A stretch of 64,000 nucleotides of DNA from Quercus robur. Lineage: Eukaryota; Streptophyta; Magnoliopsida; Fagales; Fagaceae. This document shows, in pieces, positions 6,981-63,165 of the stretch (position 1 is its first letter; each line of letters opens with the position of its first letter). The notes under the pieces are model-generated. The model saw only the letters and a list, made by a program, of their open reading frames with translations. It made no database searches and was not told the DNA's origin. The position numbers and the translations under genes were made by a program. The DNA lies in contig NC_065541.1 in assembly GCF_932294415.1 (NCBI RefSeq), positions 66,742,695 to 66,806,694 on the forward strand. The letters are read 5' to 3'.

Positions 6981-7646
6981 TGTACGACACCGAGATCCCA
7001 GGCCCACACAGGCCCTGGACCCTATCCCATATAGGCCATGGGCCCAATCCCACGCAGGCCCTGGGCCCAATCCCACGCAGGCCCTGGGCCCAATCCCACG
7101 CAGGCCCCGGGCCGAGGCCCATACCAGCCTTGGGCAAAGGTCCAACAGAAAAGTCCGGTTGTCCTGCGCCCTTCTTGGAGCTTCCTTCATGTGCGAACAA
7201 GCGTAGGGTATTGAATTCCGAGAGGTGATCGGACAAACATTCCCGGTCAAATATGCGAGCTGTGCCGGGGAAATTGTGATATTCCCGGGGAATTGAGTTG
7301 CCGAACATAGTCGGTCAAAACGGAGCCAAGTTCCAAGATCGTAAATGCTGCACCGCCCTTTTACCTAAACACCCACTTTAATCAGATAATATTGGACCTC
7401 CAGTAGCACTAACGGTGGCTGTAATCATAATCTCCCCACTAACCTAAGCTATAAATAGAAGAAAGTTGGAAGAAGAAGGGGTTCAGAAAAATTGAGAGAA
7501 AACAGTCAAGGAGAGGGTATCAACTGAGTGTTACTTTGAGTCTCTCTGCCGAGAACGACCCATTGTAGGAAATCCTTAAGCCCACTACAAATAAATTGTT
7601 AGCCCAAGTGACCCAAGGTCCAGAAGTCTTGTACTTGGTTCTTACA
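6981..7646 (+). repeat. 5' LTR (666 bp) of the Tat element
   Basis: TG...CA termini. The U3 part contains four tandem copies of a GC-rich unit of about 23 bp (GGCCCTGGGCCCAATCCCA-like, about 7007-7110). A TATA box lies at 7450. Relative to the 3' LTR it carries 26 extra bases near 7273-7310. Confidence 0.95.
7450..7457 (+). promoter_or_regulatory. LTR TATA box (genomic RNA promoter)
   Basis: TATAAATA in the 5' LTR, about 200 bp before the LTR end. The same box is at 17758-17765 in the 3' LTR. Transcription would begin near 7480. Confidence 0.7.
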
Positions 7647-7647
7647 A

Positions 7648-7665
7648 TTGGCGCCCACCGTGGGG
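7648..7665 (+). promoter_or_regulatory. Primer-binding site of the Tat element
   Basis: TTGGCGCCCACCGTGGGG starts 1 nt after the LTR. The TGGCGCC start is common for PBSs of plant Tat/Athila elements. The exact tRNA was not assigned. Confidence 0.7.
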
Positions 7666-7709
7666 CTCTCCTACGAAGCTGTGGTTTGAGTGAGACTCAA
7701 GCAAGGGAG

Positions 7710-9803
7710 ATGTTTGAGGAGCGTTCAGGGGGGCACGTTCCGAGCAATTCCGCAGGATCTTCTCGGGGATCGACGTGGAGGGAGAGAAGGCAGAAACGGC
7801 TAGAGGATAGGGAGCATCCAAGAGGAGAGGAAAGGTCCGGATTGGGAGAAGGATCGGCCCAGACACACCGGACAATTTCAAGCGTCTCAGCACATCGGCA
7901 ATATGATGATAGAGACCGGGAGCTGGAGCGGTTACGCAGATTGGTGATGGACTTGGAGCTGGAAGCAAGGGGTCGACGCCACGAAAGGAACCACAACCCC
8001 CAACCCAGGAGAAACCGTGGCGAGGAAGGTTCCAGCCGATCTGTTACACAACAATACCGAGACCGATCACGCTCTCAAGAGTCACATCGACACTCCCGGG
8101 AGACTCGTCGTAGACGGGACCGTTCCCGGTCGCATGGATATGATAACCAAGGGTCAGAGTCGCCAGAGGAGCGGCGGCACCACAACGCCGCGATGGATGC
8201 CATGAGCAGAGCCTTGCGGATGGCAGCCCGGTCTCCATTCTCTGATGAGATTGAACGGGCACCAATGCCGAGCAGATTCACGCGTCCACCATTCAATTCC
8301 TACGAGGGAAGGACAGACCCCGTGGAGCATGTCAGTCATTACATCCACATGATGTCTTTGCATGCGCACAACGATGCATTGATGTGTAAAGTATTCCCCT
8401 CTAGTCTCGGCTCTACCGCACTAAGATGGTTCAATGGGTTGCAGAAAGGTTCTATACACAGCTTCGCCGAGCTGATTCAGGAATTCGGCAGCAGGTTCGT
8501 AACATGCAGCCGGGTGCAACAACCGGTCGACGCATTGCTCTCCATGAAAATGAGGGTCGGGGAAACCCTTCAAAGTTATGCCAGTCGATACTGGGAACTC
8601 TACAACGAGATTGGTGGAGGAAACGAGAAAATTGCGGCTAGCACCTTCAGGATGGAGCTCCCCGAAGATTCTGAATTGCGGGAGTCGCTGACAAGGAGAC
8701 CCCCGGAGGATATGAGGCAACTAATGAGACGCATAGAGGAGTACAAACGCCTGGAGGATGACCGGCTGCAAAGCAGGGGGAAGGCTCCTTTTACGGGGAG
8801 ATCTCGGCAAAGCATCTTGCTGCCAAAGCCAAAAAGGGACTTCAGAATGCAGGAACCAGAGGTGCAGATCGAAGGGGTTAATGCATTGTTTAAAGAGCCC
8901 GTGCACAAAATACTGGAACGGATAAGGAACGAGCCGTTCTTCAGATGGCCGAACAAAATTGGGGGCGACCCATCTCGGAGGAACCAAAACCTATACTGCA
9001 CCTATCACAGAGACAAGGGGCACACCACCGAGCAGTGTAGGGTATTGAAAGATCATCTCGAACAGTTAGTGAAGGCAGGGCACCTGAAAGAGTTTGTAGC
9101 AGATTCCACTGATCGGGAGACCGGACAGGGCGCCCAACAGAAAAGGAACCCCCTTCCACCACCCCTGGGGGTAATCAACGTCATTCATGCCGCACCGAGA
9201 AGAGCAGCAGCGGCAAGAAGGGTAATGACAGTGGCTTGCGCGGAGGGAGAATCATCCAAGAAGCGAAAGAAAGTTGGACGGTTGGACATCTCGTTCGGAG
9301 AAGATGATTTGGAAGGAACGATCCAACCTCACGACGACGCTTTGGTGGTGACAGCCCGGATAGGCGGATTCTTGGTGAAGAGGGTGATGATTGATCAAGG
9401 TAGTGGGGCTGACGTCATGTACCCGGACCTCTTCGAAGGGCTCGGGCTAAAAACTCAGGATTTGGCAAAGTATGACACGCCATTGGTCTCGTTTGACGGG
9501 AGAGTTGTGATTCCCGAGGGGCAAATCTCTCTCCCAGTGGACATGGAGGGCAAGGAAGTTATAGTTACATTCATAGTAGTCCGATCATTCGCACCTTACA
9601 CCGCAATCCTGGGGAGGTCGTGGATTCACGCCATGGGGGCTGTTTCGTCCACTCTTCACGTGAAAGTAAAATTTCCTACTGAGTATGGAGTTGTAGAGGT
9701 AAGGGGGAATCAACAGGTGGCGAAGCAATGCCTCGTAGCCGCGGTCCGGTGGGAAAAGGAACAGCTCGGTCAAGCTGAGCACGCCGAGAAAGAAACTGCA
9801 TAG
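7710..9803 (+). CDS. Gag-protease polyprotein of the Tat element, ending in UAG
   Basis: The frame is open from 7596, but that lies inside the LTR; the first Met after the PBS is at 7710, giving 697 aa. The N-terminal third is Arg/Ser/Glu-rich. A retrotransposon Gag domain follows (starting about residue 190, PPFNSYEGRTDPVEH, with the conserved ALRWFNGL and YWELYNEI). A variant zinc knuckle CTYHRDKGHTTEQC (near 8998-9040) comes next, then the aspartic protease with active-site MIDQGSGAD (near 9388) and the flap-distal AILGRSWIHAMGA (near 9604). The frame ends in TAG at 9801-9803 and continues in the same frame into pol without another stop. Gag would form the particle; the protease would mature the polyprotein. 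Confidence 0.9.
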   Translation: MFEERSGGHVPSNSAGSSRGSTWRERRQKRLEDREHPRGEERSGLGEGSAQTHRTISSVSAHRQYDDRDRELERLRRLVMDLELEARGRRHERNHNPQPRRNRGEEGSSRSVTQQYRDRSRSQESHRHSRETRRRRDRSRSHGYDNQGSESPEERRHHNAAMDAMSRALRMAARSPFSDEIERAPMPSRFTRPPFNSYEGRTDPVEHVSHYIHMMSLHAHNDALMCKVFPSSLGSTALRWFNGLQKGSIHSFAELIQEFGSRFVTCSRVQQPVDALLSMKMRVGETLQSYASRYWELYNEIGGGNEKIAASTFRMELPEDSELRESLTRRPPEDMRQLMRRIEEYKRLEDDRLQSRGKAPFTGRSRQSILLPKPKRDFRMQEPEVQIEGVNALFKEPVHKILERIRNEPFFRWPNKIGGDPSRRNQNLYCTYHRDKGHTTEQCRVLKDHLEQLVKAGHLKEFVADSTDRETGQGAQQKRNPLPPPLGVINVIHAAPRRAAAARRVMTVACAEGESSKKRKKVGRLDISFGEDDLEGTIQPHDDALVVTARIGGFLVKRVMIDQGSGADVMYPDLFEGLGLKTQDLAKYDTPLVSFDGRVVIPEGQISLPVDMEGKEVIVTFIVVRSFAPYTAILGRSWIHAMGAVSSTLHVKVKFPTEYGVVEVRGNQQVAKQCLVAAVRWEKEQLGQAEHAEKETA

Positions 9804-9809
9804 CAATTA
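9801..9809 (+). promoter_or_regulatory. Candidate readthrough stop signal UAG-CAA-UUA
   Basis: The stop between gag-protease and pol is TAG followed by CAATTA. This fits the CARYYA consensus that makes the tobamovirus replicase stop leaky. The downstream frame is open and in phase. Function in this element is inferred, not shown. Confidence 0.6.
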
Positions 9810-12296
9810 CAGAAACCCCGGGAAACTGGGGCGGACGTTGCCGAGGAGGTGTTGAAGGTAAGAATTCTCCCAGATAGTGACAAATATTTCCAGATAGGTA
9901 CAAGCATGAATGACCGGGAAAGGGTAGAGATGTTGTTGTTCCTGTTGCAGAACATAGATGTCTTCGCATGGAACCCGTATGAAGTGCCCGGCGTAGACCC
10001 CGAGTTCATTGTTCACAAACTCAACGTGGACCCATCATTTCCCCCGAAGAAGCAGAAGCCGAGAAGAGCATCAAATGAACACGTCGATGCAGTAAACCTG
10101 GAGGTCCAGCGACTGAAGGAAGCCGGGGTCATAAAAGAAATATTCTTCCCGAGATGGCTAGCAAACACTGTCGTAGTGAAGAAGAAGAACGGTAAATGGA
10201 GAGTTTGTGTGGACTTCACCGATTTGAACAGAGCGTGTCCCAAGGACCCATTCCCGATGCCCAAGATTGATCAGCTAGTGGATGCCACGTACGGGCACCC
10301 GAGAATGAGCTTCTTGGACGCCTTCCAAGGCTACCACCAGATTGCCTTGGCGCCCGAGGATCGAGAAAAGACAGCATTTATATCCCCGAACGCAAACTAT
10401 CACTACGAGGTCATGCCGTTTGGATTGAAGAATGCCGGAGCCACCTACCAGCGTATGATGACAAGGATGTTCCGAGAAAAAATTGGATGCATGGTTGAAG
10501 TTTATATCGACGACATGGTGGTAAAAGGCAGAAAAGAGTCGCTGCATACTGAAGACCTTCGGGGAGTATTCGAGATACTACGACGACACAAGCTACGCCT
10601 GAATGCCGAAAAGTGCACTTTCGGAGTGGGGGCTGGCAAGTTCCTAGGTTATCTAATCTCCACTCGGGGAATAGAGGCTAACCCCGACCAAATAGAGGCC
10701 GTCAATCGCCTCAAACCACCAAGCAATCCTAAGGAGGTGCAAGTACTCACTGGGATGTTGGCCGCCCTGAACCGATTCATCTCCAAGTTTGTCGATCGCT
10801 GCCGGCCATTCTATCAACTTCTGAAGAAGTGGAAGGGGTTTCAATGGGACAAGAGCTGCGATGAAGCTTTTCGAGAACTAAAGGAATACTTGGCAAAGGC
10901 GTCGAGGTTGACAGCCCCGGAGCCCGGGGAGGATCTGTTTATGTACCTTGCAGTCACCGACCATGCCGTAAGTGCTGTGTTACTAAGGGACCGGGGAGTG
11001 CAAATGCCGGTGTATTACGTGAGCAAAACCTTAGTCGATGCTGAGACAAGGTACCTGCCTCTTGAAAAGTTGGTTTTGGCCCTGGTGCACGCCACGAGGA
11101 AGTTACCACACTACTTCCAGGCACACACAGTGTTCGTCCTCACCGAGTATTCATTGCAATCGCTGTTGAAGAGATCCGACTTCACAGGACGGATTGCTAA
11201 ATGGGGGACTCGGTTGGGATCATTTGACATAAGATACCGACCTAGAAGCTTGGTGAAGGGACAAGTTCTCGCTGATTTCATCGCGGAATTTACACCCAAG
11301 AATGAAGGCAAGGTAATCTGTAGTGCGGAGATTCGCCCGTGGAGGTTATTTGTGGACGGCGCATCAAATGCTATGGGGGCCGGGGCTGGTATTGTCATAA
11401 TCACCCCTGAAGGTATGCGACTGGAACACTCCTTCAGATTAGGGTTCAAAGCCTCGAACAACGAAGCCGAATATGAAGCCCTACTGGCCGGGTTGAGGGC
11501 AGTATTGCATCTGAGCGCAAAGGACGTGGAGATCTACTCGAACTCTCGGCTGGTTGTTTATCAGATCACTGGGGACTTCGAGGCTCGGGACCCCCGAATG
11601 AAAGCTTATCTAAGTACGGCAAAGCAAATTATCGGTCAGTTTGGAACGGTAAAGATATCCCAGGTAGCCCAGTTACAAAACAAGCATGCTGACTCTCTTG
11701 CCACGTTAGCCTCATCGGCTACCGAGGACACGCCGAGGCTTATCACAATAGAACTTATAAGGGAGCCAAGCATCTGTGTGAAGACTGCTCTCGACCAGGC
11801 CGGAGTAGAGGTTGCGCAGGTGGCGGTAGCCGGACCATGCTGGATGAACCCGATCATAGACTTTCTTTCCGAAGATAAGGTTCCAGAAGATGAGGCCGAG
11901 GCCAACAAGATTCGACGAATGGCTCCCAGGTACTGGTTGTCTTCGGACCAAAAGTTGTACAAAAGGTCCTTCGCGGGCCCCTACCTCTTGTGCCTGCATC
12001 CTGAAAGAGTCAAGGAGCTTCTGACCGAGCTGCATGAAGGAGTGTGCAACGGGCATGCTGGGGGACGATCTTTAGCACACAGAGCAATGACGCAGGGGTT
12101 TTGGTGGCCACAGATGCAGAAGGACGCCGCCGAATACGTTCGGAGCTGCGAACAATGTCAGAAGCACGCCCCAATGATCCATCAGCCGGCAGGACGTCTA
12201 AATCCTGTCAGCAGCCCGTGGCCATTTGCACAATGGGGGCTTGACATCCTCGGGCCGTTCCCTGAGCAACGGGGAACCGCCGATTTTTACTGGTAG
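9804..12296 (+). pseudogene. Pol, first part: reverse transcriptase, RNase H, second RNase H, integrase N-terminus
   Basis: It continues gag-protease in frame after the UAG. The reverse transcriptase has VCVDFTDLNRACPKDPFP (about 10205) and the catalytic YIDDMVV (10503). The attached RNase H follows (TAPEPGEDLFMYLAVTDHA region, about 10908). A second, archaeal-type RNase H spans about 11337-11720 with FVDGASN, NNEAEYEAL and NKHADSLATLAS, but the expected FSDS/YSDS motif reads YSNSRLVV (11530-11553), so one catalytic carboxylate is Asn. The integrase zinc-binding region (GHAGGR...CEQCQKH) is intact. The frame then runs off into TGG-TAG at 12291-12296 because one G is missing in the run at 12271-12274. 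The integrase core continues in another frame. Confidence 0.9.
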
Positions 12297-13078
12297 CTGT
12301 AGATTACTTCACAAAGTGGGCTGAAGCTGAAGCCTTGGCCAATATCCGGGATACTGACGTGAAAAAATTTGTGTGGAAAAACATAGTTACAAGGTTTGGA
12401 GTGCCGAATTCACTAGTGACAGACAATGGGCTACAGTTCGACAGCAACGCTTTTCGGACCTTTTGCAGCGAGCTCGGCATCAAGAACAAGTATTCAACCC
12501 CGGCATACCCCCAGAGCAACGGCCAAGCTGAAGCAGTAAACAAGACTATTTTGAACGGGCTTAAGAGAAGGTTGGACGAAGCGAAAGGAAGATGGGCAGA
12601 AAAACTACCCAGTGTTTTATGGGCCTACCGCACGACCCCCAGGAGATCCACGGGGGAAACCCCGTTTTCTCTGGCATACGGAGCAGAAGCAGTGATACCA
12701 ACCGAGGTGAGCTTATGCAGTGCACGGGTCGCCGGGTTTGACCCCGTACAGAACGCCGACCTGATGATGGAGCATTTGGATTGGCTAGAAGAATGCAGGG
12801 AGGCCGCAACCGTACGTCTTGCCGAGTATCAGCAGAAGCTGGCCCAAAGGTACAACCGAAATGTAAGGGCCAGGGAGTTCAGTGCCGGGGAGTTAGTGTT
12901 AAGAAGGGTAGTGGGGAACATGCGGGACATGGCTGCAGGGAAGCTTGCTCAGAGTTGGGAGGGACCATACAGAGTCACAGCCATCGCAGGTGCAGGGGCA
13001 TACTACTTGGAAGACCTAGACGAGAGACCGCTCCCCCGACCATGGAACGCCAACAACCTGAAGAAATTCTACGCGTAA
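12272..13078 (+). pseudogene. Pol, second part: integrase catalytic core (frameshifted)
   Basis: Read one frame over from the upstream pol. It encodes LLVAVDYFTKW (first catalytic Asp, about 12289), TDNGLQFDS (second Asp, 12421) and NGQAEAVNKTIL (catalytic Glu, about 12522), then a C-terminal GPY/F-type module with SWEGPYRV (about 12955) and ends LKKFYA-stop. No chromodomain is seen. Without the missing base it would be continuous with 9804-12296. Confidence 0.9.
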
Positions 13079-13185
13079 TCGTCGATGTAAGCCAAAACTT
13101 GTATTCTATTAAGATTAAGAGCATGATGAACTTTTTTGTCTATGCTGTTTTTGACCCTGTAACCACACACCAAGAGAATCGCCAA

Positions 13186-14035
13186 TAAATCTTAAGGACA
13201 GAAACCTGACCCTCGGCTCGATCAATATCGCCGAGCAGGTGAAAACCTTACAAATAAATCTTAAGGACAGAAACCTGACCCTCGGCTCGATCAATATCGC
13301 CGAGCAGGTGAAAACCTTACAAATAAATTTTAAGGACAGAAACCTGACCCTCGGCTCGATCAATATCGCCGAGCAGGTGAAAACCTTACAAATAAATCTT
13401 AAGGGCAGAAACCTGACCCTCGGCTCGATCAATATCGCCGAGCAGGTGAAAACCTTACAAATAAATCTTAAGGACAGAAACCTGACCCTCGGCTCGATCA
13501 ATATCGCCGAGCAGGTGAAGGCCTTACAAATAAATCTTAAGGGCAGAAACCTGATCCTCGGCTCGATCAATATCGCCGAGCAGGTGAAAACCTTACAAAT
13601 AAATCTTAAGGACAGAAACCTAACCCTCGGCTCGATCAATATCGCCGAGCAAGTGAAAACCTTATAAATAAATCTTAAGGGCAGAAACCTGACCCTCGGC
13701 TCGATCAATATCGCCGAGCAGGTGAAAACCTTAGAAATAAATCCTAAGGACAAAAACCTGACCCTCGGCTCATATCGCCGAGCAGGTGAAAACCTTACAA
13801 ACAAATCTTAAGGACAGAAACCTGACCCTCGGCTCGGTCAATATCGCCGAGCAGTTGAAAACCTTAGAAATAAATCCTAAGGACAGAAACCTGACCCTCG
13901 GCTCATACCGCCGAGCAGGTGAAAACCTTACAAACAAATCTTAAGGACAGAAACCTGACCCTCGGCTCGATCAATATCGCCGAGCAGGTGAGAACCTTAC
14001 AAGTAAATCTATAAGGACAGAAACTTGATTCTCGG
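13186..14035. repeat. 69-bp tandem array, about 12 copies plus degenerate ends
   Basis: Unit: about 69 bp containing AAATCTTAAGGACAGAAACC, CCTCGGCTCGATCAATATCG and CCGAGCAGGTGAAAACC. Most copies have period 69; those near 13765, 13826 and 13901 have small deletions. Each unit holds an imperfect palindrome: CTCGG, bulge CT, CGAT, loop CAAT, ATCG, CCGAG. Because 69 is a multiple of 3, spurious long open frames appear on both strands. It lies between integrase and the antisense gene. Confidence 0.95.
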
Positions 14036-17314: not shown

Positions 17315-17954
17315 TGTACGGCACCGAGATCCCAAGCCCACACAGGCCCTGGGCCCTATCCCATACAGGCCATGGGCCCAATCCCACACAGGCCCTGGGC
17401 CCTATCCCATACAGGCCCTGGGCCCAATCCCACGCAGGCCCCGGGCCGAGGCCCATACCAGCCTTGGGCAAAGGTCCAGCAGAAAAGTCCGGTTGTCCTG
17501 CGCCCTTCTTGGAGCTTCCTTCATGTGCGAACAAGCGTAGGGTATTGAATTCCGAGAGGTGATCGAACAAACATTCCCGGTCAAATATGCGAGCTGTGCC
17601 GGGGAAATTGTGATATTCTCGGTCAAAACGGAGCCAAGTTCCAAGATCGTAAATGCTGCACCGCCCTTTTACCTAAACACCCACTTTAATCAGATAATAT
17701 TGGACCTCCAGTAGCACTAACGGTGGCTGTAATCATAATCTCCCCACTAACCTAAGCTATAAATAGAAGAAAGTTGGAAGAAGAAGGGGTTCAGAAAAAT
17801 TGAGAGAAAACAGTCAAGGAGAGGGTATCAACTGAGTGTTACTTTGAGTCTCTCTGCCGAGAACGACCCATTGTAGGAAATCCTTAAGCCCACTACAAAT
17901 AAATTGTTAGCCCAAGTGACCCAAAGTCCAGAAGTCTTGTACTTGGTTCTTACA
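17315..17954 (+). repeat. 3' LTR (640 bp) of the Tat element
   Basis: Same termini and TATA box as the 5' LTR. It is 26 bp shorter near 17608, where the 5' LTR has an extra segment bounded by similar TTCxCGG sequence. Confidence 0.95.
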
Positions 17955-21362: not shown

Positions 21363-23387
<2,025 letters not shown>

Positions 23388-27120: not shown

Positions 27121-27321
27121 AGGCTTGTGTCTTGGCACAGGCGATAGGTCGAGACAGTTCCCTTGTCGTTTCTAACAGCCGGTTATAGTGTTCTAGCGTA
27201 AAATTCCACTAGGGGCTATGATTCTTGACTAGGGGCTACGCTTTGTAGCGTCAATCGCATGGATGGTTCTAGGGGCTTGGCCGAGGAGCTAATTCCCCTA
27301 AAGCCAAGGCCCCATGCCAAA

Positions 27322-28500
27322 AACTGAGTTTTGGACAGAATCAAGGCATTGCATGGTCCTCGAACTCAAACCTATGGGGAAACCAACTACTTGGAAGAAA
27401 AACTGAGTTTTGAACAGAACCAAGGTATTGCATGGTCCTCGGACTCAAACCTATGGGGAAACCAACTACTTGGAAGAAAAACTGAGTTTTGGACAGAACC
27501 AAGGTATTGCATGGTCCTCGGACTCAAACCTATGGGGAAACCAACTACTTGGAAGAAAAACTGAGTTTTGGACAGAACCAAGGTATTGCATGGTCCTCGG
27601 ACTCAAACCTATGGGGAAATCAACTACTTGGAAGAAAAACTGAGTTTTGGACAGAACCAAGGTATTGCATGGTCCTCGGACTCAAACCTATGGGGAAACC
27701 AACTACTTGGAAGAAAAACTGAGTTTTGGACAAAACCAAGGTATTGCATGGTCCTCGGACTCAAACCTATGGGGAAACCAACTACTTGGAAGAAAAACTG
27801 AGTTTTGGATAGAACCAAGGTATTGCATGGTCTTCGGACTCAAACCTATAAGGAAACCAACTACTTGGAAGAAAAACTGAGTTTAAGACAGAACCAAGGT
27901 ATTGCATGGTCCTCGGACTCAAACCTATGGGGAAACCAACTACTTGGAAGAAAAACTGAGTTTTGGACAGAACCAAGGTATTGCATGGTCCTCAGACTCA
28001 AACCTACGGGGAAACCAACTACTTGGAAGAAAAACTGAGTTTTGGACAGAACCAAGGTATTGCATGGTCCTTGGACTCAAACCTATGGGGAAACCAACTA
28101 CTTATCAATATTTATCAAGTTTTGGACAGAACCAAGGTATTGCATGGTCCTCGGACTCAAACCTATGGGGAAACCAACTACTTATCAATATTTATCAAGT
28201 TTTGGACAGAACCAAGGTATTGCATGATCCTCGGACTCAAACCTATGGGAAAACCAACTACTTATCAATATTTATCAAGTTTTGGACAGAACCAAGGTAT
28301 TTCATGGTCCTCGGACTCAAACCTATGGGGAAACCAACTACTTATCAATATCTATCAAGTTTTGGACAGAACCAAGGTATTACATGGTCCTCGGATTCAA
28401 ACCTATGGGGAAACCAACTACTTATCAATATCTATCAAGTTTTGGACAGAACCAAGGTATCGCATGGTCCTCGGACTCAAACCTATGGAAAGGTCGGCTA
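27322..28500. repeat. 79/80-bp tandem array, about 15 copies
   Basis: About ten 79-bp units (TTTTGGACAGAACCAAGG, ATTGCATGGTCCTCGGACTC, AAACCTATGGGGAAACCAAC, TACTTGGAAGAAAAACTGAG) are followed by about five 80-bp units in which the last block is replaced by ACTTATCAATATTTATCAAG. Since 79 is not a multiple of 3, the same peptide pattern appears in all three frames. Confidence 0.95.
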
Positions 28501-38226: not shown

Positions 38227-39305
38227 TCATAAATAATAATACATTCGTAGGTTATTTACATTCCAAGGGCGTGATACTACATTTTCATCTAGATCTTCGA
38301 GATAATATGCACCTATTCCAACCACCGAGGTGATGCGATATGACCCTTTCCAGTTAGGCCCTAACTTTCCCCATGCTGGGTTCTTTGCAGTGTCCAAAAC
38401 CTTTCTTAATACCAAGTCTCTAGGTCCTAATGGCCTCAACCTCAAGTTGGCATCGTGCCCTTACTTGAGCTTATGTTGATAATACGCCAATTGAACTATG
38501 ACATTTTCTCTTCGCTCTTCAATTAGATCTAAACTCTTCTCTAATTGCCTATCATTGTTGTCCGAAATGAAAGAACTCATCCTCAATGTTGGGAATCCAG
38601 TCTCCAAAGGAATCACAGCTTCGGCTCCATAAGTCATTGAGAAGGGGGTCTCCCTTGTTAACCTACAAGGTGTGGTCTGATATGTCCAAAAGACGTGTGA
38701 CAACTCTTCTACCCATTTTCTCTTTGCATCGTCAAATCTCTTCTTGAGTCTATTCACTATAACTTTATTGACAACCTCGGCCTGTCCATTCCCCTGTGGA
38801 TAAGCCGGGGTGGAATACCTATTTGTAATGCCTAGGTCACAATAGTACCTTCTGAAAGCTTTGTTATCAAACTGAAGGCCATTATCTGAGATGAAGGTAT
38901 GAGGAATCCCAAACTGGGTGACAATATTTTTCCAAACAAACCTCTTGGCATCCACATCCCGGATATTTGTCAATGGTTCAGTTTCAACCCACTTAGTGAA
39001 GTAATCCGTGCCAACTAGTAGCCATCTTTTTACATGTTCGGCCACCAATATCCCTGAGTGAGAGCTCTGTGAGATAAGGATCTGCTTCTTGTGTGGCTTC
39101 CACAGATCCTTTCATGTAACTCCTTCAGGAGTAGCTCTGATGCCTTAGGGTGTATGCATAACAAATATAGCCCAGAAAAAGAGCGTTTATACAACTTTTG
39201 GTCCTCGGACAGCCAAAACCAAGAAGCCTTTCTTCGCACTTTGTTAGCCTCAAACTTCCCCTCGGGTAAGATATCCTCCTTAAGAAATAGCACTATAAAG
39301 TCCAT
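38227..39305 (-). pseudogene. Integrase of the reversed Tat element, degenerate
   Basis: Minus-strand pieces 39305-39030 (zinc-binding HERICGSHTRSRSLSHRA, ending WWPNM), 39048-38461 (TDYFTKW with the first Asp, SDNGLQFDN with the second, NGQAEVVNK with the Glu) and 38445-38227 (C-terminal NWKGSYRI module). Roughly 60 codons that normally lie between WWPNM and the core, including the two zinc-binding cysteines, are missing at 39030-39048. A stop also splits the C-terminal module from the core at 38461. Confidence 0.85.
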
Positions 39306-47754: not shown

Positions 47755-48475
47755 TTTGGTCAATTCAATCTATTTTGGTCCATTCGGTCCAATTCGGTTC
47801 TATTTGATCCTATTCGGTCCATTCGGCCTCTGTCTATTTTGGTCCTATTCGGTCCATTCTGTTCATTTCTCCTATTTGGTCCAATTTTGTGCATTGGGTT
47901 CTATTCGGTCCACTTTGGTCTAATTCGGTCCCATTTGGTCCTATTGGGTCTACTTTGTTCCACATTGGTCCTATTTCGCCCCACCTGGTCCTATTGGGTA
48001 TACTTCAGTCCACATTGGTCCTATTCGGTCCATTCTATCCACTTCAGCCTTATTCGGTCCACATTGGTCTCTTCGGTCCACTTTAGTCCTATTCAATTCA
48101 TTCAATCCACTTTGGTCTTATTCTGACCACTTTGGTCCTATTCGGTCCATTATGCCTACTTTGGTCTTATTCGGTCGACTTCAGTCCTATTCTGTCCACT
48201 TTGTTTCTATTCCGTCCACTTTGGTCCTATTCGGTCCACTTTGGTTCTTTTCGGTCTATTCGATCCAATTTGGACTTATTCGGTCCACATTGGTCCTATT
48301 CTGTTCACTTTGGTCCACTTTATTTCTATTCGGTCCATGCTGTCTACTTTGGTCTTATTCGGTCTACTTTGATCCTATTCAATCCACATTAGGTTCTATT
48401 CCGTCCATTCTATCCTATTCAGTCAACTTTGATCCTATTCGATCCATTTGGCCCACTTCGGTCCATTTTTGTGTA
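47755..48475. repeat. Minisatellite of GGTCC-TATTC / GGTCCACTTT motifs
   Basis: Over about 700 bp, short units such as TTTGGTCCTATTCGGTCCAC repeat with variable 10-25 bp spacing. The plus strand is C/T-rich and G-poor apart from GG. Open frames rich in Phe, Ser, Leu and His follow from the repeat and are not called as genes. Confidence 0.9.
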
Positions 48476-49149: not shown

Positions 49150-49275
49150 CTAGTGCTTGTAATTAGGGTTGTCACGGAGACCAAGTTTAGAGAGAACCAA
49201 GCAGTAGGAATCCCAGTCAGTTCTTCGGAGATACTTCAATATCCTCTTCCTCCTCTGCACCATTGCTTGAAGACC
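49150..49275 (-). pseudogene. uS15m: uS15m last exon, 3' half, separated from the rest by the insertion
   Basis: On the minus strand it encodes the S15 C-terminal helices from GLQAMVQRRKRILKYL through LSKLGLRDNP to a TAG at 49150. It directly follows the second copy of the 9-bp target duplication (49276-49284, coding S-I-K). Confidence 0.9.
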
Positions 49276-49284
49276 CTTTATAGA

Positions 49285-50540
49285 GGATCCGGATCCTCTC
49301 CATTTCCCCTTGAAATGGAGAGGGTCCAGTTCACGGTGGAGATTTGTTTGAAAATTATCAAGGGCCAAAAACGTGCCACATCATTTAAAATGTAAACACC
49401 ACACTTAACCCCAGTTAAACATTTAAACTACTTTAACTCAAGTTAAACACTTAAACTAGAAGCACTCAACCGGACAAACCACTGAAAATGTTTCAGACTC
49501 TCTTTCAAACTCTCTCTCACCAAACCCATATGAAAATTTCAAACTCTCTTCTCCAAGGATTTTCTCTCTGCATCCCACGTTCCTCAGTGTCGCCGGTGCC
49601 ACCAGCCATCGTGCCAAGCCACCGTTGTTGCGTGGGCTATGTCTTACACCAACCTAGCATCAGCGGAAAGTGCCGCCCACTTGCAGGCATAGGCACTACC
49701 CAGCATCACCGGACTGCTCCGCTAGAACAGTCACTACCCAGTAAGTTTCTCTCTCTAATTTTTTTTATTGATAACCTCTGTTTGGTTGCTGAAAAAATGA
49801 AGGGAAAAAGAACTATGATACCGCTATTTTTGATTGATTTATTGGTGCTAAATATGGTTTTTTTTTTTTTTTTTTTTTTTTTTTGTTGTTGATAGAACGG
49901 TTTCTTTGCGTTTGTGTGTGTTTTAATTTTTTTTTTTTTTTTTAGCTTTTGGTTTTAAGCTTGGTGGGTTGTTTCAGATTTGGGGGATTTATGGATTGTT
50001 TTGATCTAAATTTGTTCTAAAAGCAATGGTATTTATGTTTTGATCTCTGTGTTTGTGAAAGAACCATGTACTCCTCGAGAGGGAGCAATGCGTTTGGGCA
50101 GCAATCGTATGCGGCTCAATCGGCTGCGTATGGCGCTAGTGTAAGTTTCTTTTCTGTTTATCAAAGCAAAAATTTTTATCTTTAGTTGTGTTTTGAACAA
50201 GAGTCTTGTAGGTGTAATGTGGGAAATATGCAGGGATAGGAATAATTGCATATATAATGGTGTGGCGGTATTGGTTATCGAGCTGAATTTGTTGTTTTTT
50301 AAGATCATTGTTTGAGTGGTTGTGTATTATTGGAACTAGTAATACCCATTTAATTGTAGGCCTTATAGACCCTCTATATTGTTCAGATTTGGGGGATTTA
50401 TGGATTGTTTTGATCTAAATTTGTTCTAAAAGCAATGGGATTTATGGGTTATATTTTTTATTCCATGCCCAAGTTTCTTGAGACTAGGATAAAAAACAGT
50501 TATAGATTGTTTTGATCTGAATTTGTTCTAAAAGCAATGG
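49285..50540 (+). repeat. Left terminal inverted repeat of the Mutator-like element
   Basis: It matches 53458-54688 in inverted orientation. It contains an open frame from ATG 49488 (MFQTLFQTLSHQTHMKIS..), a possible splice donor GTAAGTTTC near 49741, and a second ATG exon at 50066-50140 ending in a donor, which together look like captured host-gene sequence. It has T runs near 49859-49883 and 49927-49943. Confidence 0.9.
50066..50140 (+). pseudogene. Captured ATG exon within the left inverted repeat
   Basis: 25 codons from ATG (MYSSRGSNAFGQQSYAAQS..), rich in Ser, Gln and Ala, end exactly at a strong splice donor (AGT/GTAAGTTTC). The mirrored copy is at 53929-53855 on the minus strand with one Gly-to-Trp change. 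The donor gene was not identified. Confidence 0.5.
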
Positions 50541-51821
50541 GATTTATGAGTTATATTTTTGATACTACGCCCAAGTTTCTTGAGACTAGGATAAAAAACA
50601 CAAAAAGGAAAAGCATAAGCAAAGCTAATTTTTTTTTAGAATAAACGGCAGAAGCAAAGCTAGTTTAAGATAAAGGATGAGTGAAGAATTAATTATTGGA
50701 AAATACTCCATATGCAAATGCTTTGCATAAGTTAAGAAAAAAGACATGAAAATGACAACATAAAAGAAAGGCATGGTTCCAGGAGAAACACCAAGTGCAG
50801 AATTATCTGTGTGTGTTTTATGCTGTGGTTATTAGAATGCTTGGTTCCATTTTTTTGGTTTGTGGGTATTTTTTTTTATCACACTGTTATGTAAATGTAT
50901 GTGCTTTTCCATGGATTTTGATTTTATTTTTAATTGTTCACTCTATTATGAAAGGTTTAGGAAATGTATTGTGAGTGTCTCTTTGTTTTCCCTGTCATGC
51001 CACTGATTGCAGAATTGGGTGTGTGTAAATTGTCCTTTGTAGGAATGGAATGGGCAAGTTGTTTAACATGAGGCAAGTCGAAGTGATCAAGCTAAGATTG
51101 AAAGTTGTGGACTTTGGATGGAATGTATAGTCAAGAAGCAAGAGGTGGAATGTGTAGTCAAACAATAAGCACAACAATTGTAGAAATTTCATGTTATTAT
51201 AATCATGTAATTAAAGTGTATATTTCAATGGAATTCTTGTTATGTGACCAAAGTGTACATTTTAATAAAATTTGTTCATTTTTTATTATATTCCTTTCTT
51301 GTCTACTCTATTGGATCAAATTTCATTCGACATCAAAATTGATCAATTTGAAGCAATTGCTCTATTTTTTATGATACTTTGACCTTGTAGTCATGTATGT
51401 GGTACAAATTCCATTGGTTTATGGTTTCTATAAAACAACGCATAAATGGGAAAATTTGTCATGCACAAGTACATACATAGTTGCAATGCTTCAAGGGAAA
51501 ATAAGTTGTCACATTTATGAACAATGATTGACTAAAAACTACTCAAACATGTACATATAATAAACCAACATACATGAGTACCTTCATAAGCCAACTATGA
51601 AAACTATCCAAATGCTACTACAAATTATGCACACACTTGTCAAAGTTGTCCTACAAGCTAAGAATATATCAAATCTAAATCTTTACTAAAACTGAAAAAT
51701 TAGCCTTGCTAGCTTCAAAATTTGTTGTCTTCAATCGGTCATGGAATACTTCAAAACCTTTTCTTGATAACAAGTGTGTAAAATTTGGTACATGAAGCTT
51801 TGCATATATCTTGCACTTGAC
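50541..51821. other. Interior of the Mutator-like element, nothing recognised
   Basis: AT-rich; contains a partial extra copy of the TIR end sequence (ATTGTTTTGATCTGAATTTG near 50508). No transposase or host domain was found. Confidence 0.4.
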
Positions 51822-52580
51822 TTTTTTTTTTTTTTTTTTTTTTTTTTTGGCTAAACTTCAATGTCATTCATACGAAAAAGAAGATACTACAGCATAGGAG
51901 TCTACCACACAAGCAAAGAGGACAACCTCAGGTAGATTCTCCTTGTCAATCACAAAGGTAATGCAGAATTCAAAGCTAGCTTTGCAGCATTATGTGCTGC
52001 AAAATTACAAGACCTACGGACCCAAACAAAAGAGTAACTAAGAAAAACTGATGCAGAGTTTAGGATATTAACAATATCATTGCTGATGGCCCAGTTAGGC
52101 ACAAAAGGATTGTCAGACAGTAAATCCATACACATCTTGGAATCGCTCTCTATGATTACTTGTTTCCACCCTTCATTAGAGGCTAGATTGACTGCCTTGC
52201 ACTTGCTTCTGCTTGGATGGGGGTGCAGCTATGGTGAGGTTTAGCCCAAACTTTGATCACCTCGCCGAGGGAGTTCCTTGCTACTACTGCTAGTGCAGTT
52301 CCTGATGGTCCAGTTGCAGCATCCATATTTAGCTTGACGAACCTAGTCAAGGGTGGCTTCCAAACCTGGGATGAAGATGCGCAATGAGCTTTGTTGGCTG
52401 CCTGGATTACAGTACGGAACTCTATGATTCTGCTTTGAATCCGCAAGCAGGCTTCACGGATGTTAACTTTCTCGCCTTGGAAAACAGCTCTGTTTCTTAA
52501 ATTCCATATTCCATCTACCACGAAGGAGGGGGTGCAAGGGTGAGCTTGATTATGTCACCACTGCTCTGTACCCTTCTCTT
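51822..52580 (-). mobile_element. 5'-truncated L1-type LINE fragment (RNase H-like C-terminus)
   Basis: Minus-strand frames 52521-52183 and 52135-51950 encode an RNase H-like domain: FVKLNMDAATGPSG (Asp), IQAEA (Glu), IIESDSKMCMDLL (Asp), RRSCNFAAHNAAKLAL. The frames are joined by a 1-nt shift near 52180. A 27-T run at 51822-51848 is the poly(A) tail in reverse. Plant L1 LINEs carry such a domain at their C-terminus. No target duplication was found. Confidence 0.75.
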
Positions 52581-53457
52581 CAGACTTTTAATAGATGGCT
52601 GCTAGCTGCTTCAACTCATTTTCTATAAAAATAAAAATCAAATGCATTATGACAAAAATACATACCATCAAATGAAAGTTCTAAACATATAGCAAATACA
52701 TTATAACAAACTATAAGTGATTCACATACTCAACCATGATAAATAGCTATGATACATAAAGCATATGATATAATGTAGGAGTAAATTCAAGCATGCCAAG
52801 ATGCAAAACTGATGTGATAAAAAATTAAATGATAATTCTACAAAGCACTACTGATAACAAGTAATGTTAGGGACATAAATTTCAGCAAGGTACTTAAAAG
52901 TATTGTTAATGCACAAAGAAGTTCAAAGAAGCATGTTTTGCATTAAACCAATCATCAAGCATTATTGTTAACCAAGTTCTTAAATTTAGAATTAGTGCCA
53001 AGAACTACAGCAACCATTCTTGAGGTAAAATTGATAAAGGTATGGGAAGGGTGGAATTTTTTTATAGAAGAATTTGATAATGGAATGAACATATCACAAA
53101 GCAGTTCTATACCATAGAAGAGTTACACCTCAAAAGAGCATTTGACCCCATATTGACTTCTTCTTATTAGAACCTAAAGGTGTTGACATTGACAAGTTAA
53201 TTTGAAAGTAAAAGGTTTAATTCAGCTTATAAGCTAAAATGGTAAAAGTTAATGACCATATTTTTCATAATGATGAGGAGCAAGAGTTCGGAATTAGGCA
53301 AAGCAGAGAAAAAAAAAATCAAATACTAAAATAATTTTAGTAACAAATTCAGATTGAAACAACCCATAAATCTTACAAAGCTGAAACACCACTTGCTGAT
53401 TTCAATCTATAAACTCAAAACCAACCACTGAAAAAATATAGCACAAAAAAGGAAACC
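52581..53457. other. Interior of the Mutator-like element, nothing recognised
   Basis: AT-rich, no open frame with a recognisable domain. Confidence 0.4.
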
Positions 53458-54688
53458 ATTGCTTTTAGAACAAATTCAGATCAAAACAATCCATAACTGT
53501 TTTTTATCCTAGTCTCAAGAAACTTGGGCATGGAATAAAAAATATAACCCATAAATCCCATTGCTTTTAGAACAAATTTAGATCAAAACAATACATAAAT
53601 CCCCCAAATCTGAACAATATAGAGGGTCTATAAGGCCTACAATTAAATGGGTATTACTAGTTCCAATAATACACAACCACTCAAACAATGATCTCAAAAA
53701 ACAACAAATTCAGCTCGATAACCAATACGCCACACCATTATATATGCAATTATTCCTATCCCTGCATATCTCCCACATTACACCTACAAAACTCTTGTTC
53801 AAAACACTACTAAAGATAAAAAATTTTGCTTTGATAAACAGAAAAGAAACTTACACTAGCGCCATATGCAGCTGATTGAGCCGCATACGATTGCTGCCCA
53901 AACGCATTGCTCCATCTCGAGGAGTACATGGTTCTTTCACAAACACAGAGATCAAAACATAAATCCCATTGCTTTTAGAACAAATTTAGATCAAAACAAT
54001 CCATAAATCCCCCAAATCTGAAACACCCCACCAAGCTCAAAACCAAAAGCTAAAAAAAAAAAATTAAAACACACACAAACGCAAAGAAACCGTTCTATCA
54101 ACCAAAAAAAAAAAACCATATTTAGCACCAATAAATCAATCAAAAATAGCGGTATCATAGTTCTTTTTCCCTTCATTTTTTCAGCAACCAACACAGAGGT
54201 TATCAATAAAAAAATTAGAGAGAGAAACTTATTAGGCAGTGACTGTTCTAGCGGAGCAGTCCGGTGATGCTGGGTAGTGCCTATGCCTGCAAGTGGGCGG
54301 CACTTTCCGCTGATGCTAGGTTGGTGTAAGACATAGCCCACGCAACAACGGTGGCTTGGCACGATGGCTGGTGGCACCGGCGACACTGAGGAACGTGGGA
54401 TGCAGAGAGAAAATCCTCGGAGAAGAGAGTTTGAAATTTTCATATGGGTTTGGTGAGAGAGAGTTTGAAAGAGAGTCTGAAACATTTTCAGTGGTTTGTC
54501 CGGTTGAGTGCCTCTAGTTTAAGTGTTTAACCTAAGTTAAAGTAGTTTAAATGTTTAACTGGGGTTAAGTGTGGTGTTTACATTTTAAATGATGTGGCAC
54601 GTTTTTGGCCCTTGATAATTTTCAAACAAATCTCCACCGTGAACTGGACCCTCTCCATTTCAAGGGGAAATGGAGAGGATCCGGATCC
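53458..54688 (-). repeat. Right terminal inverted repeat of the Mutator-like element
   Basis: Inverted copy of 49285-50540. Because uS15m is on the minus strand, transcription from that gene would enter this repeat first: after codons DKHSIK it adds 36 codons (GSGSSPFPLEMERV..) before a TAA at 54580-54578. Confidence 0.9.
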
Positions 54689-54706
54689 CTTTATAGAATG
54701 CTTATC
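54689..54706 (-). pseudogene. uS15m: uS15m last exon, 5' half
   Basis: It follows acceptor TTGTAG (minus strand) and encodes DKHSIK, the start of the S15 DxHS signature, then is cut by the Mutator-like element. Confidence 0.85.
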
Positions 54707-56146
54707 CTACAACATTATAGTTATAATAATATACAAATAAATAAATCTAAGAAGGGAAAAAGAGAAAGTAACAGCACCTACAGTACTTAGACTATGCAAT
54801 CAATTAAAAAGGGAGACTACTTAGCACTCTTATTATTAATTTTTGGAACCCCACTCATCTGTAATATATTGGCTGTTGTACTGAAGGCAACAGCAACTAG
54901 TAACTAATTAAAAATGTCAAACACATATAACTTCTTGCTCCCTAATATCATTCAGCTAGCTGGATGCCAGTCGTATCCTGCCACATCAATTGCTGCTTTG
55001 ATGCAACATTGCATTTGCTTGAGTCAATTCATCAGATAAGTAAAGCAAAAAAATAACATTTAGTTGTCATGAGTTTCATTTGAATGATATTAACTTTCAC
55101 AAGAGTCCAATGTGCTCATGCATTACAGCACACTGCAAAAATGTGGCAAGATTCTAAACTGATGTTGCACAACTTGCACTTGCACCAGTGGTGGTCAGTT
55201 TGGTCTGTGTTCTTGGTTTCATGAACACCTGTAAGTGCAACTGATTAAATATTTCTTATCCACAATTTCAAGCTCTTGAAATTTATTACTCGTCTCCTCT
55301 CCTCTCACTTCATCTTCCTCCATTCCAAACATACACTAAAAGTATTAGCTAGAACAATATATACCATGTTAATCACCTCAATGCCCCTAATTTATTGTTA
55401 ACTAGGTGCAGGTAGATAACAAGATTTGTAAGAAATTGTTCAATCAAGGGATTGATATTACCCCCAAATAAAACTATCTAATGCAAGACTGAATTCAAGG
55501 AAGTGTTAAAACTAAACAATACAGGACTAAGTAGTAATATAATGAAAAGAATCTAAATAATAGACTCAAATAAATAGTACTTGGTTCAACTGTCACCTTC
55601 TTGTGTAAAACTGAAGATAGATGCTTGATCTTAGTTGTGAGTTGTGCCACTGCAAAGAAATCAGAGAAAGGAAATCCATAATCATATCCAAAAAAATGAT
55701 TGCAAGCTTAGTATGTATGGAAGAAGTTTCAAGGATCACTGAAATTTGCACTTCTTGCAAGCAAAAAGAACAAGAAGGGTATTTTCATTTCCATTAAAGT
55801 TGTTTGTTGCACCCACAGAAGGGCAAAAAGACATGATCAAAAAGATTATTGAGAGAGAGAGAACAACCTCATATTTCAGGGGTTCAAATGGCTCAACCTA
55901 ATTTTATATTCCATCTAGCCACAACAGGGATTTCTAATAAAATAGAAATTTTTCTGGTAAGTCCACAACAGAACTTTGAAAAAAATACATTTATGCCATC
56001 CTAGTCTAACCACATGCTCCTCATGGAAAAGTTCGAAGCTAATTTAGATAATAGCTACTTGGTATCTCTTGGCTAGCCAACTCAACTGCTACTCATTTCT
56101 TAAAAAAAAATATCTATTTTATATTGTGTTTCACCAAGATTTAATA

Positions 56147-56323: not shown

Positions 56324-57263
56324 AGATTTAATACAATGGAAGAAATATACACTTCTGGAAATTTCAGGTTTAATAGAGATTTAACTGACTAGGAATTGGA
56401 GTCGACAAACTCCTTTGATATCTTGTATGCTTATAAGTTATATCCCTAGCTGAGAGGACCCTAGTTGAATCAGGTGGAGGTTGAATAGGCATGGAGAATT
56501 TGATGTTCGCTCCTATTATGAGACATTGAGAGGCCCATGTGTTGTAAGTTTCCCATGGAAGAGTGTGGTGTTCCAAGGCACCAAAAAGAGTCACGATGAC
56601 CTCACCCTCCACTTTGCTTTTACAAGGGCTAGAACCCATTGGCATTTATCCTTTTCTTAATGGTCTTCTCCTTTAACATGTTTGGGAACATATAAGGGCA
56701 GATGTAAAACAATGTTAAAAAAGGGTTATCATCTAGTATTACAAACAGGAAATGGAACCAAAATATAAGACCAAAAAACACATCATTCAAAAGAATTATA
56801 TTAAAGCAGGTAAATTTCAGCATACTTTTATTTTAAAAGATAAAGGTTATACACATGCACCACAAAACAGAAATCAGAAACATGCAATCTATCAAGATGG
56901 AAAAGTGTAACGGAACTAAAATGTAAACCCCTTTACCTTGAACGCGTCCAGATCCACAATCTGAATCTGACATTTTAAATTCATCTCTAACTTTTGCAAG
57001 CTCAATTTTCAGTTTTTCTGCAGAAGACATATTATCCGGATGGAAATACTGCATTAAACATATTTCAAAAGTATTAGAGCATCAAATCCCTTTAGATCTT
57101 AGAAAGGTAGAGTAACTTCTGTGAAATCTACATAAATGCAGGCTTTAGAAGGTTAAATTTTTTGACTGGTAAAAAAAATAACAAAGTCATTAAAAACAGT
57201 TTGTGCATTAAAAGATTCATACTGGGCTCCATTTAAGAACATGCACTTCCTTGAGGGGCGGAA

Positions 57264-61032: not shown

Positions 61033-62049
61033 CTGAATTTTTCTTTGCCTTCTCAAGTTCCAGCTGCCTCATCCAATCCAAGCTCTCCCTCAAGTCCTTA
61101 AATGAAATTCCACCAATCCTCAACTCAGTATCCTTCTCCTCCATCTCCCTCAACTTCATCAGCCTCTCATTCAACTCTGAGAGAGAAAACCACAAAGTCT
61201 CCCCTTCCTTCTTCACCTCCTCCACAGAAGGCCTAAGATTCCTCAGCTTTTCCCCCAACTCCCCATAGCTATACATCTTCACAAACTCTGTCTTCATCGC
61301 CATTGTCTCCCTCTCCCCTGCCTTTCTCTCCCTCCCATTCCCGAACACCGAAAGCGGCAGCATATCAGTCCCACCAATCACTGGGCCCGAATTTGATGTC
61401 GGCTTCAATTTCAAACTATTCTTAAATGCCAATAAGGTCATGGGGTCCCCACTGCTCCTCTGATTTTGGGGTGGCTCAGTTTTCAAATGAATCTGCCTCA
61501 AGCTTTCTCGAATCGCTTCAAAGGAAAGATTGCGGCCAATGCCACCACCACCGACTTTCGAAGGCCAGATTCGGTGGTATTTGTGGTAGCATTCTCGTCT
61601 GCCTTCGCAGTCACATTCCGTTTGTAAAGCTCTTGAAATGAGATGTTCTGAGAGGAGTGTGTAGAGTTGGGTTGAATGGTGGAAGGTGGCACAGAGGATC
61701 TGGTGCGAAACTCAGATAGGTTCTTGCAGATTTCTTCAAGGGAAGCGGCTTTGGAAGGCCTAGAAAAAGATGAGCTTAAAGGGTTTGAAGGTTTGGATGG
61801 GTTTGTGGGGTTCCTTGAAGAAAATGGGGAAATAGGTCTTTGTTGTTGTTTGAGACTAGCTTTGACATCAGAGAAATGGGAAGAAAATGAGGATTGGGAT
61901 TGGGATTGGGATGAAGTGGAGGATGGGTATTGATCAGTGGTGGGGTCAGGAGGAGGGGTGGACGAGGTGGAGAAGAGGTGGATGAGAGAAGGGTTGTGGA
62001 GGGTTCTGTGTTTGGGTCTGAGTTGGAGAGCAGCAGCAGCAGCAGCCAT
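61033..62049 (-). pseudogene. uS15m: uS15m exon 1 (frameshifted)
   Basis: ATG at 62049 begins MAAAAAALQLRPKHR, a typical targeting-type N-terminus. The first frame runs through NISFQELYKRNV to a stop at 61498. The expected continuation NLSFEAIRESLRQIHLK lies in another frame that runs on to a CAG/GT donor at 61033. One base missing in the TCGGTGGTGGTGGC tract would explain it; an assembly error is possible. Confidence 0.8.
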
Positions 62050-63165
62050 GGGAGCGGCTGAGGAGGACTGGGACAGAGGTGTGTTGGAGATTTATTAGGG
62101 TTTGGGATTGGGAGGTGAAGAAAAAGATTGGAGTGAGGGTTTAGTGTGCAACCCATGAAGTGGGCTTGGTATTTTTGAAGTTAAAGCTTCCACCATTGAT
62201 AAAAACCCAAGCTGGTACCTGCACCCAACCAAAACAAGAACTGATGATAAATTTCAAAATTAAAGTGACAACAGCTCAGAGAAAATGCAGCATTAAAGGA
62301 TTGTAAAACCTAAGGAAAAATGCACTACACAGGGACTTCTACAAAATTTCAATTGAAATCAATATGCTAACACACATAATTTAAATTGATCATATACCAC
62401 ACTGAACATCACTTGATGGTGACCTCTTTCAGCTGGTGTAGAACAATGCAGATTCAATTTACTGTTGACAGAAACTGACCAGCTGGCTTTGAAATTGTTA
62501 TAAGTCCGTATAACACTTGAAACTTTCAGGAAAGAACCGAACACATGGAACTAGCATTCTGTAAAACTTCTAACTGGTTAGAACTACAGGGTGTGGCATA
62601 ACTAAGCAATAAACTTTGAGTGAGTTGAAACATTAGATAGGAATGAGCCTTTGTGATGAAATTTGGTATGATAGCATCTCTGATACTGAATTTAAAACAT
62701 CTAGAAACTGCGAATTTTTTTTCTGCCAAAAATAAAACTTTATCAATCTACAGAAACCTATAACTGTCACATAAACATCAATGAACCACTAAATTGAATA
62801 AAGCCCTCTAGAATTACAAAACAGCTGGCTTCCCCATCTGTTGCAAATGCAATTCATAGGGTTGCATCTTTGGGATAGCCCAAAACAACAAAGCCCCACA
62901 TTCTAATACTGGTTATAATGTATCACACCACTTAATTCCAAGATACATCTTTCACTTTATGATACAGAAAAGAAAATAAAGCTCAATACAGCAAATTTTA
63001 TCAATATATACCCAAAAACATTTTGCAAAAAATAGTAAATTGACCCAAAACCACCTACTCAAATCAATAATGCATTAACAAAAGAAAATTCCCAAGCATA
63101 TGCATAATTACAACAATCATTTCAAACTGTACTCATTTATAAGACCAAAAATATACCCAAAGTTA

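What the first reader, a model, noticed from the sequence alone, without database searches (positions are those of the whole stretch)
49276..54697. Mutator-like element inserted in the last coding exon of a mitochondrial ribosomal protein S15 gene
The perfect 9-bp duplication CTTTATAGA lies inside S15 codons (S-I-K on the minus strand). The S15 signature is cut between DKHSIK and GLQAMVQRRK, separated by 5404 bp. A transcript would read 36 foreign codons and stop, losing the C-terminal helices that complete the rRNA-binding fold. An exonic hit in an essential-family gene is unusual and implies another functional copy, a very recent or polymorphic insertion, or a rescue mechanism.
Basis: partly seen in the sequence, partly recalled or inferred. 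Interest (0 to 1): 0.9.

Follow-up and report, generated by a model that had tools for sequence, protein, structure and literature searches.

The report
Transposon in a spare ribosomal-protein gene
A Mutator-type jumping element sits inside the last exon of a mitochondrial ribosomal-protein gene of a tree of the oak family, but this copy is a second, also frame-shifted duplicate of a gene that is intact in related oaks and chestnut, so the hit is real but not paradoxical.

Summary
A 5,404-bp element (49285-54688) with ~1.26-kb terminal inverted repeats (95.7% identical) and a perfect 9-bp duplication, CTTTATAGA, interrupts the last coding exon of a minus-strand uS15m gene. The rest of the gene is there: five coding exons with splice sites (one GC donor); the best database matches are oak and chestnut uS15m. 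Read into the element, the frame gives 36 foreign codons and a stop, as stated.

The 'essential gene' paradox dissolves. (1) Exon 1 carries a frameshift ~7 kb upstream; the frame from the ATG ends after 183 codons and never reaches the element. (2) The locus is the second of two uS15m copies in Fagaceae: it groups 100/100 with incomplete models from Castanea and Quercus suber, apart from full-length proteins of Q. suber, Q. lobata and Castanea. Arabidopsis also has two uS15m genes (PMC6953067 table).

Best reading: a non-autonomous MULE in a dying paralog. The window's own genome could not be searched, so an intact copy in the same plant is inferred, not shown. Neatly preserved, but ordinary biology.

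The parts
49285..54688 (.). Mutator-like element, 5,404 bp, non-autonomous
   Evidence: no transposase family in any of the 19 stop-to-stop frames of 60 aa or more that lie wholly inside
49276..49284 (.). target-site duplication CTTTATAGA, left copy
54689..54697 (.). target-site duplication CTTTATAGA, right copy
49285..50560 (+). left terminal inverted repeat
   Evidence: blastn of the element on the window
53432..54688 (-). right terminal inverted repeat
50066..50140 (+). exon-like piece in the left repeat: 25 codons from an ATG (MYSSRGSNAFGQQSYAAQSAAYGAS), then GTAAGT; parent gene not identified
   Evidence: two searches found nothing
53855..53929 (-). the same exon-like piece in the right repeat (one residue differs)
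51950..52228 (-). RNase H-like fragment (RVT_3, PF13456), probably a retroelement piece nested in the element; T run at 51822-51848
61033..62049 (-). uS15m coding exon 1, with a frameshift near 61550; frame from the ATG ends after 183 codons
58107..58189 (-). uS15m exon 2 (GC donor)
56937..57048 (-). uS15m exon 3
55597..55649 (-). uS15m exon 4
54689..54706 (-). uS15m exon 5, first 18 bases (DKHSIK), before the element
49150..49284 (-). uS15m exon 5, remainder after the element to the stop codon (includes the second copy of the duplication)
62159..62221 (-). upstream stretch, perhaps 5' UTR, matched by the Q. suber second-locus model P0122
63698..63790 (-). further upstream stretch, perhaps 5' UTR, matched by P0122

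Best explanation
The window holds the second of two uS15m loci of Fagaceae, which were separate before Quercus and Castanea split. Copy 1 keeps the ribosomal job. Copy 2 (this one) lost its reading frame by a frameshift in exon 1 and, separately, took a non-autonomous Mutator-like element by ordinary cut-and-paste insertion with a 9-bp duplication, 18 bases into its last coding exon. The element does nothing for the gene; it is a second lesion in a redundant, dying copy. Shown: element, duplication, exons, frameshift, two-clade tree, full-length copy-1 proteins in three species. Inferred: that copy 1 is present and active in this same plant, that copy 2 makes no useful protein, the transposition mechanism (from the family), and that decay is under way; the order of the two lesions is unknown.
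For: Element and duplication. Exons and frameshift; the prematurely ended 183-aa frame is in the protein database as P0121. Full-length copy 1: P0001 Q. suber, P0002 Q. lobata, P0003 Castanea, 95-97% identical to each other and 81-82% to the window in my alignment. Exon-1 tree of 25 rows: window, Castanea P0082, Q. suber P0122, P0126, P0127 one clade 100/100; canonical rows (P0001, P0002, P0003, P0142) one clade 100/99. The four other second-locus rows are incomplete too: P0082 ends at 262 aa and lacks 24 residues inside, P0122 is fused to a LOB-domain model and stops in exon 1, P0126 and P0127 run into intron 1. Of the 120 hits listed (of 526) none is above 83% identity to the window, and the two above 78% are P0008 (canonical type) and P0082 (incomplete), so no full-length second-locus protein shows there. 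Arabidopsis has two uS15m genes, AT1G15810 and AT1G80620 (PMC6953067, table passage).
Against: Exons 2-5 are still 126 of 130 identical to copy 1 (3 window-side changes against 1 with walnut or pecan as outgroup, 1 against 1 with Carpinus), so this copy was constrained until recently or was converted by copy 1. Over exon 1 as a whole it is not faster than copy 1 (26 against 21, p 0.56), and before the frameshift it is slower (7 against 18, p 0.043). The incomplete relatives are gene models, not checked sequences. The frameshift could be an assembly error; no reads. In the canonical clade Q. suber groups with Castanea and not with Q. lobata (97/89), which is not the species order. Own genome unreachable.
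Confidence: 0.84

Rival explanations
1. The frameshift is an assembly or sequencing error, and the insertion is a recent, possibly heterozygous hit on a copy that still works in other individuals.
For: Perfect 9-bp duplication; conserved exons 2-5; frame open at this place in Castanea P0082 and Q. suber P0122.
Against: The 183-aa frame stands in the database as a cluster of 8 sequences on one listed contig, which need not be independent. Window-private changes are 1 of 106 sites before and 9 of 126 after the frameshift (p 0.023), but P0126 and P0127, which are in frame there, also have 10 and 11 of 126, so this is weak. Relatives' second copies are incomplete in other ways.
Confidence: 0.11
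2. The copy still makes uS15m because the element is removed from the transcript by splicing: exon 4 (ends in phase 0) joins to an AG in the duplicated target or in the element's left end, giving KK-GLQAMVQ or KK-GKWRGSGSSIKGLQAMVQ.
For: Exons that would start at 49275 or 49308 are in frame with exon 4 and with the S15 tail. Exons 2-5 are conserved.
Against: The frameshift in exon 1 remains, so such a transcript still ends after 183 codons. The first form loses DKHSIK. No transcript data; no splice-site scoring was done.
Confidence: 0.04
3. The window's locus is the only uS15m of this plant, which survives by another route.
For: No copy 1 lies in the 64-kb window (tblastn of P0001 hits this locus alone).
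Against: Copy 1 is full length in three Fagaceae and forms a clade that holds both Quercus and Castanea; its loss here would be a separate event.
Confidence: 0.01

Closest known systems
Mutator-like elements (MULEs), non-autonomous
   Same: 9-bp target duplication, terminal inverted repeats of over 1 kb, no transposase domain found
   Different: no difference found; insertion lies in a coding exon of a broken gene copy
Pack-MULEs
   Same: an exon-like coding piece followed by a consensus 5' splice site lies in the element
   Different: the piece lies inside both repeats and no parent gene was found
uS15m paralog pairs of plants (Arabidopsis AT1G15810 / AT1G80620)
   Same: two nuclear genes for one mitoribosomal protein (PMC6953067)
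   Different: here one copy is frame-shifted and holds a transposon; whether the two duplications are one event was not tested

Membership tests
Mutator-like element (structural definition) | target-site duplication of about 9 bp (range 8-10 recalled) | tested here: met
   CTTTATAGA on both sides, 9 of 9
Mutator-like element (structural definition) | long terminal inverted repeats | tested here: met
   about 1.26 kb, 95.7% identical; PMC3310237 abstract passage names long repeats as the mark
Mutator-like element (structural definition) | repeats shared with an autonomous family member of the same genome | not testable with these tools
   own genome unreachable (12 calls)
Autonomous Mutator-like element | MULE transposase gene | tested here: not met
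   none in 19 of 19 internal frames of 60 aa or more scanned against Pfam; a non-autonomous member
Pack-MULE | captured fragment of an identifiable host gene | tested here: inconclusive
   exon-like piece at 50066-50140 and 53929-53855; no parent found
uS15m gene family | Ribosomal_S15 domain with plant mitochondrial relatives as best matches | tested here: met
   PF00312 62.1 bits; 6xyw and 9evs best in PDB; plant proteins
Working uS15m gene | uninterrupted reading frame | tested here: not met
   frameshift in exon 1 and element in exon 5

The most novel reading that the evidence does not exclude
The long N-terminal extension encoded by uS15m exon 1 is kept as a protein of its own after the S15 domain is lost. 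Several Fagales models cover exon 1 and list no Pfam domain (Castanea P0082, Carya P0123, Alnus P0124, Juglans P0125 and P0128, Fagus P0129 and P0131), and the part of the window's copy that can still be read has 1 private change in 106 sites against 9 in 126 behind the frameshift (weak, see report).
Probability: 0.04. Interest if true: 0.5.

Novelty: new member of a known kind. Interest (0 to 1): 0.22.

Why it matters
It turns an apparent hit on an essential gene into a case of paralog decay: two uS15m copies in Fagaceae, one apparently being lost in different ways in different lineages, with a transposon caught in it. Filled against empty site, and open against shifted frame, are usable markers for timing that loss across oaks and chestnuts.

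Tried and rejected
Rejected: chance repeat; two loci wrongly joined (both halves share frame, exon and the 9-bp duplication); essential gene without backup; splicing rescue as main reading (the frameshift remains).

Led nowhere: Pfam and protein search for the parent of the exon-like piece in the repeats (from memory it resembles the N-terminus of the plant protein SHORT ROOT IN SALT MEDIUM 1, a lead only, no call supports it); a target duplication for the inner retroelement piece (only a 7-mer); weak Pfam rows below cut-off inside the element (BCCT 16.1 bits against 27; TMEM192 11.4 against 25), taken as chance.

Paper searches, listings with abstract starts only: 0 papers; 1; 2; 30, 12 listed; 1; 2; 0; 1; 6. 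None of the listed titles or abstract starts speaks of this insertion; that is all I can say about print. Passages were read of PMC3310237, PMC6953067 and PMC13042303; PMC3029777 is not held.
Full report
What was checked. The duplication CTTTATAGA lies at 49276-49284 and 54689-54697 and flanks 5,404 bp whose ends are exact inverted copies for at least 22 bases. The arms run 49285-50560 and 53432-54688, 95.7% identical over 1,281 aligned columns. Between them lie 2.9 kb. The 19 stop-to-stop frames of 60 aa or more wholly inside the element were scanned against Pfam: no transposase; one RNase H-like fragment at 51950-52228, minus strand (PF13456, 39.7 bits). Inside both arms lies an exon-like piece of 25 codons before GTAAGT. 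A 9-bp target duplication (recalled as typical) plus repeats of over 1 kb are the structural marks of Mutator-like elements; the abstract of PMC3310237, seen as a passage, says that long terminal inverted repeats distinguish these from other DNA transposons.

The host gene. On the minus strand the coding exons are 62049-61033, 58189-58107, 57048-56937, 55649-55597 and 54706 onward, interrupted after 18 bases and resumed at 49284-49150. They were set by hand from frames and splice sites: acceptors AG; donors GT except exon 2, which has GC. In the Carpinus model the end of exon 2 is read on for a few residues, which would fit a missed GC donor there too; this is an inference. The tail matches plant mitoribosomal uS15m best. 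The insertion falls after DKHSIK; 41 residues follow it.

In exon 1 the frame that starts at the ATG ends after 183 codons; the rest of exon 1 is open in another frame. tblastn with P0001, P0082 and P0122 breaks at the same place, near 61550. Castanea P0082 and Q. suber P0122 run in one frame across it. So this copy has two lesions, and translation would not reach the element.

A second copy. A search with the read-through protein gave 526 hits at E 0.001 or better, 120 of them listed. The three best are Q. suber, Q. lobata and Castanea proteins of 477, 472 and 469 aa, 95-97% identical to one another but 81-82% to the window (BLAST figures are 77-78%). A second Castanea protein, P0082, is 89% identical to the window over 259 aligned residues. 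A search with P0082 gave 80 hits at E 1e-20 or better, among them P0121 (the window's own 183-aa frame), P0122 (a Q. suber model that joins a LOB-domain gene to this locus and also matches window 63790-63698 and 62221-62159) and P0126 and P0127. That search admits lengths up to about 458 aa, so a full-length second-locus protein could only have shown, where none of the 120 listed rows exceeds 83% identity. An exon-1 tree of 25 rows puts window, P0082, P0122, P0126 and P0127 in one clade (100/100) and the canonical Fagaceae rows in another (100/99). P0122 fills 35% of the columns. Within the canonical clade Q. suber stands with Castanea (97/89), not with Q. lobata, so the fine order is not to be trusted. 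The order of the two clades, Fagus and the other Fagales is open. The duplication is therefore older than the Quercus-Castanea split; how much older is not settled. By these matches the organism is a member of Fagaceae; the genus is not settled.

Decay. The four other second-locus rows are incomplete in different ways; these are gene models, not checked sequences. Relative-rate counts with walnut P0004 as outgroup and Q. suber as canonical row: exon 1 as a whole 26 window-side against 21 (p 0.56); before the frameshift 7 against 18 (p 0.043); after it 19 against 3 (p 0.001); exons 2-5 3 against 1 (p 0.63). The eight other combinations of canonical row and outgroup, which are not independent, point the same way in the two parts of exon 1 (p up to 0.27 before, up to 0.09 after); with Carpinus exons 2-5 are 1 against 1. 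Of the changes at sites where the three canonical rows agree with walnut, 5 of 5 before and 11 of 18 after the frameshift are shared with another second-locus row, so constraint on the later part of exon 1 was weaker in this clade before the window's own lineage. Window-private changes are 1 of 106 sites before and 9 of 126 after (p 0.023); with P0082 as the only comparison 2 of 113 and 6 of 71 (p 0.057). Against reading this as an effect of the frameshift: P0126 and P0127, in frame at that place, have 10 and 11 of 126 after it, with only 9 comparable sites before. P0082 shows 5 of 110 and 4 of 63, P0122 5 of 52 and 2 of 29; canonical rows show 1/147 and 4/168 (Q. suber), 4/150 and 3/167 (Q. 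lobata), 10/156 and 4/168 (Castanea). So the clade looks relaxed in the later part of exon 1, and the counts neither prove nor date the window's frameshift. Exons 2-5 hold at most 3 window-side changes in 130 residues, so the S15 part was kept until recently, or was overwritten by copy 1.

Reading. The most likely course: duplication of uS15m in the Fagaceae line; copy 1 keeps the work; copy 2 stays under selection for a long time, then decays by different lesions in different lineages; in this plant, a frameshift and a MULE insertion, in unknown order. Plants with two uS15m genes are known (Arabidopsis AT1G15810 and AT1G80620; PMC6953067, table passage), so nothing here needs a new mechanism.

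Limits. Hence no direct proof of copy 1 in the same plant, no sister elements, no reads, no transcripts, no dN/dS.

Noticed in passing
window 7569-13075 (+): Long open frames that read by eye as gag, reverse transcriptase, RNase H and integrase of a Ty3-type retrotransposon; not scanned.
   Followed up: no
window 22944-23384 (+): Peroxidase domain (PF00141, 90.8 bits), C-terminal part of a peroxidase-like gene.
   Followed up: partly
window 38467-39111 (-): Integrase core remnant (PF00665, 32.4 bits, just under the cut-off of 32.6).
   Followed up: partly
window 47777-48465: Degenerate GGTCC-rich tandem array close to the 3' end of the uS15m locus.
   Followed up: no
window 27319-28488 and 13184-14035: Tandem arrays of 79 bp (14.7 copies, 95% matches) and 69 bp (12.5 copies, 92%).
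   Followed up: no
window 7003-7135 and 17331-17469: Two arrays of a similar 23-bp unit rich in CCCAATCCCACACAGGCCC about 10 kb apart, perhaps the two ends of one retroelement (guess).
   Followed up: no
proteins P0123, P0124, P0125, P0128, P0129, P0131: Fagales gene models that cover uS15m exon 1 and list no Pfam domain; two Juglans ones (F2P56_016713, 016715) have locus numbers next to the full-length 016716, which suggests tandem partial copies.
   Followed up: partly
window 50398-50600: A 102-bp unit in two tandem copies at the inner end of the left terminal repeat; the same scan lists no such array in the right arm.
   Followed up: no
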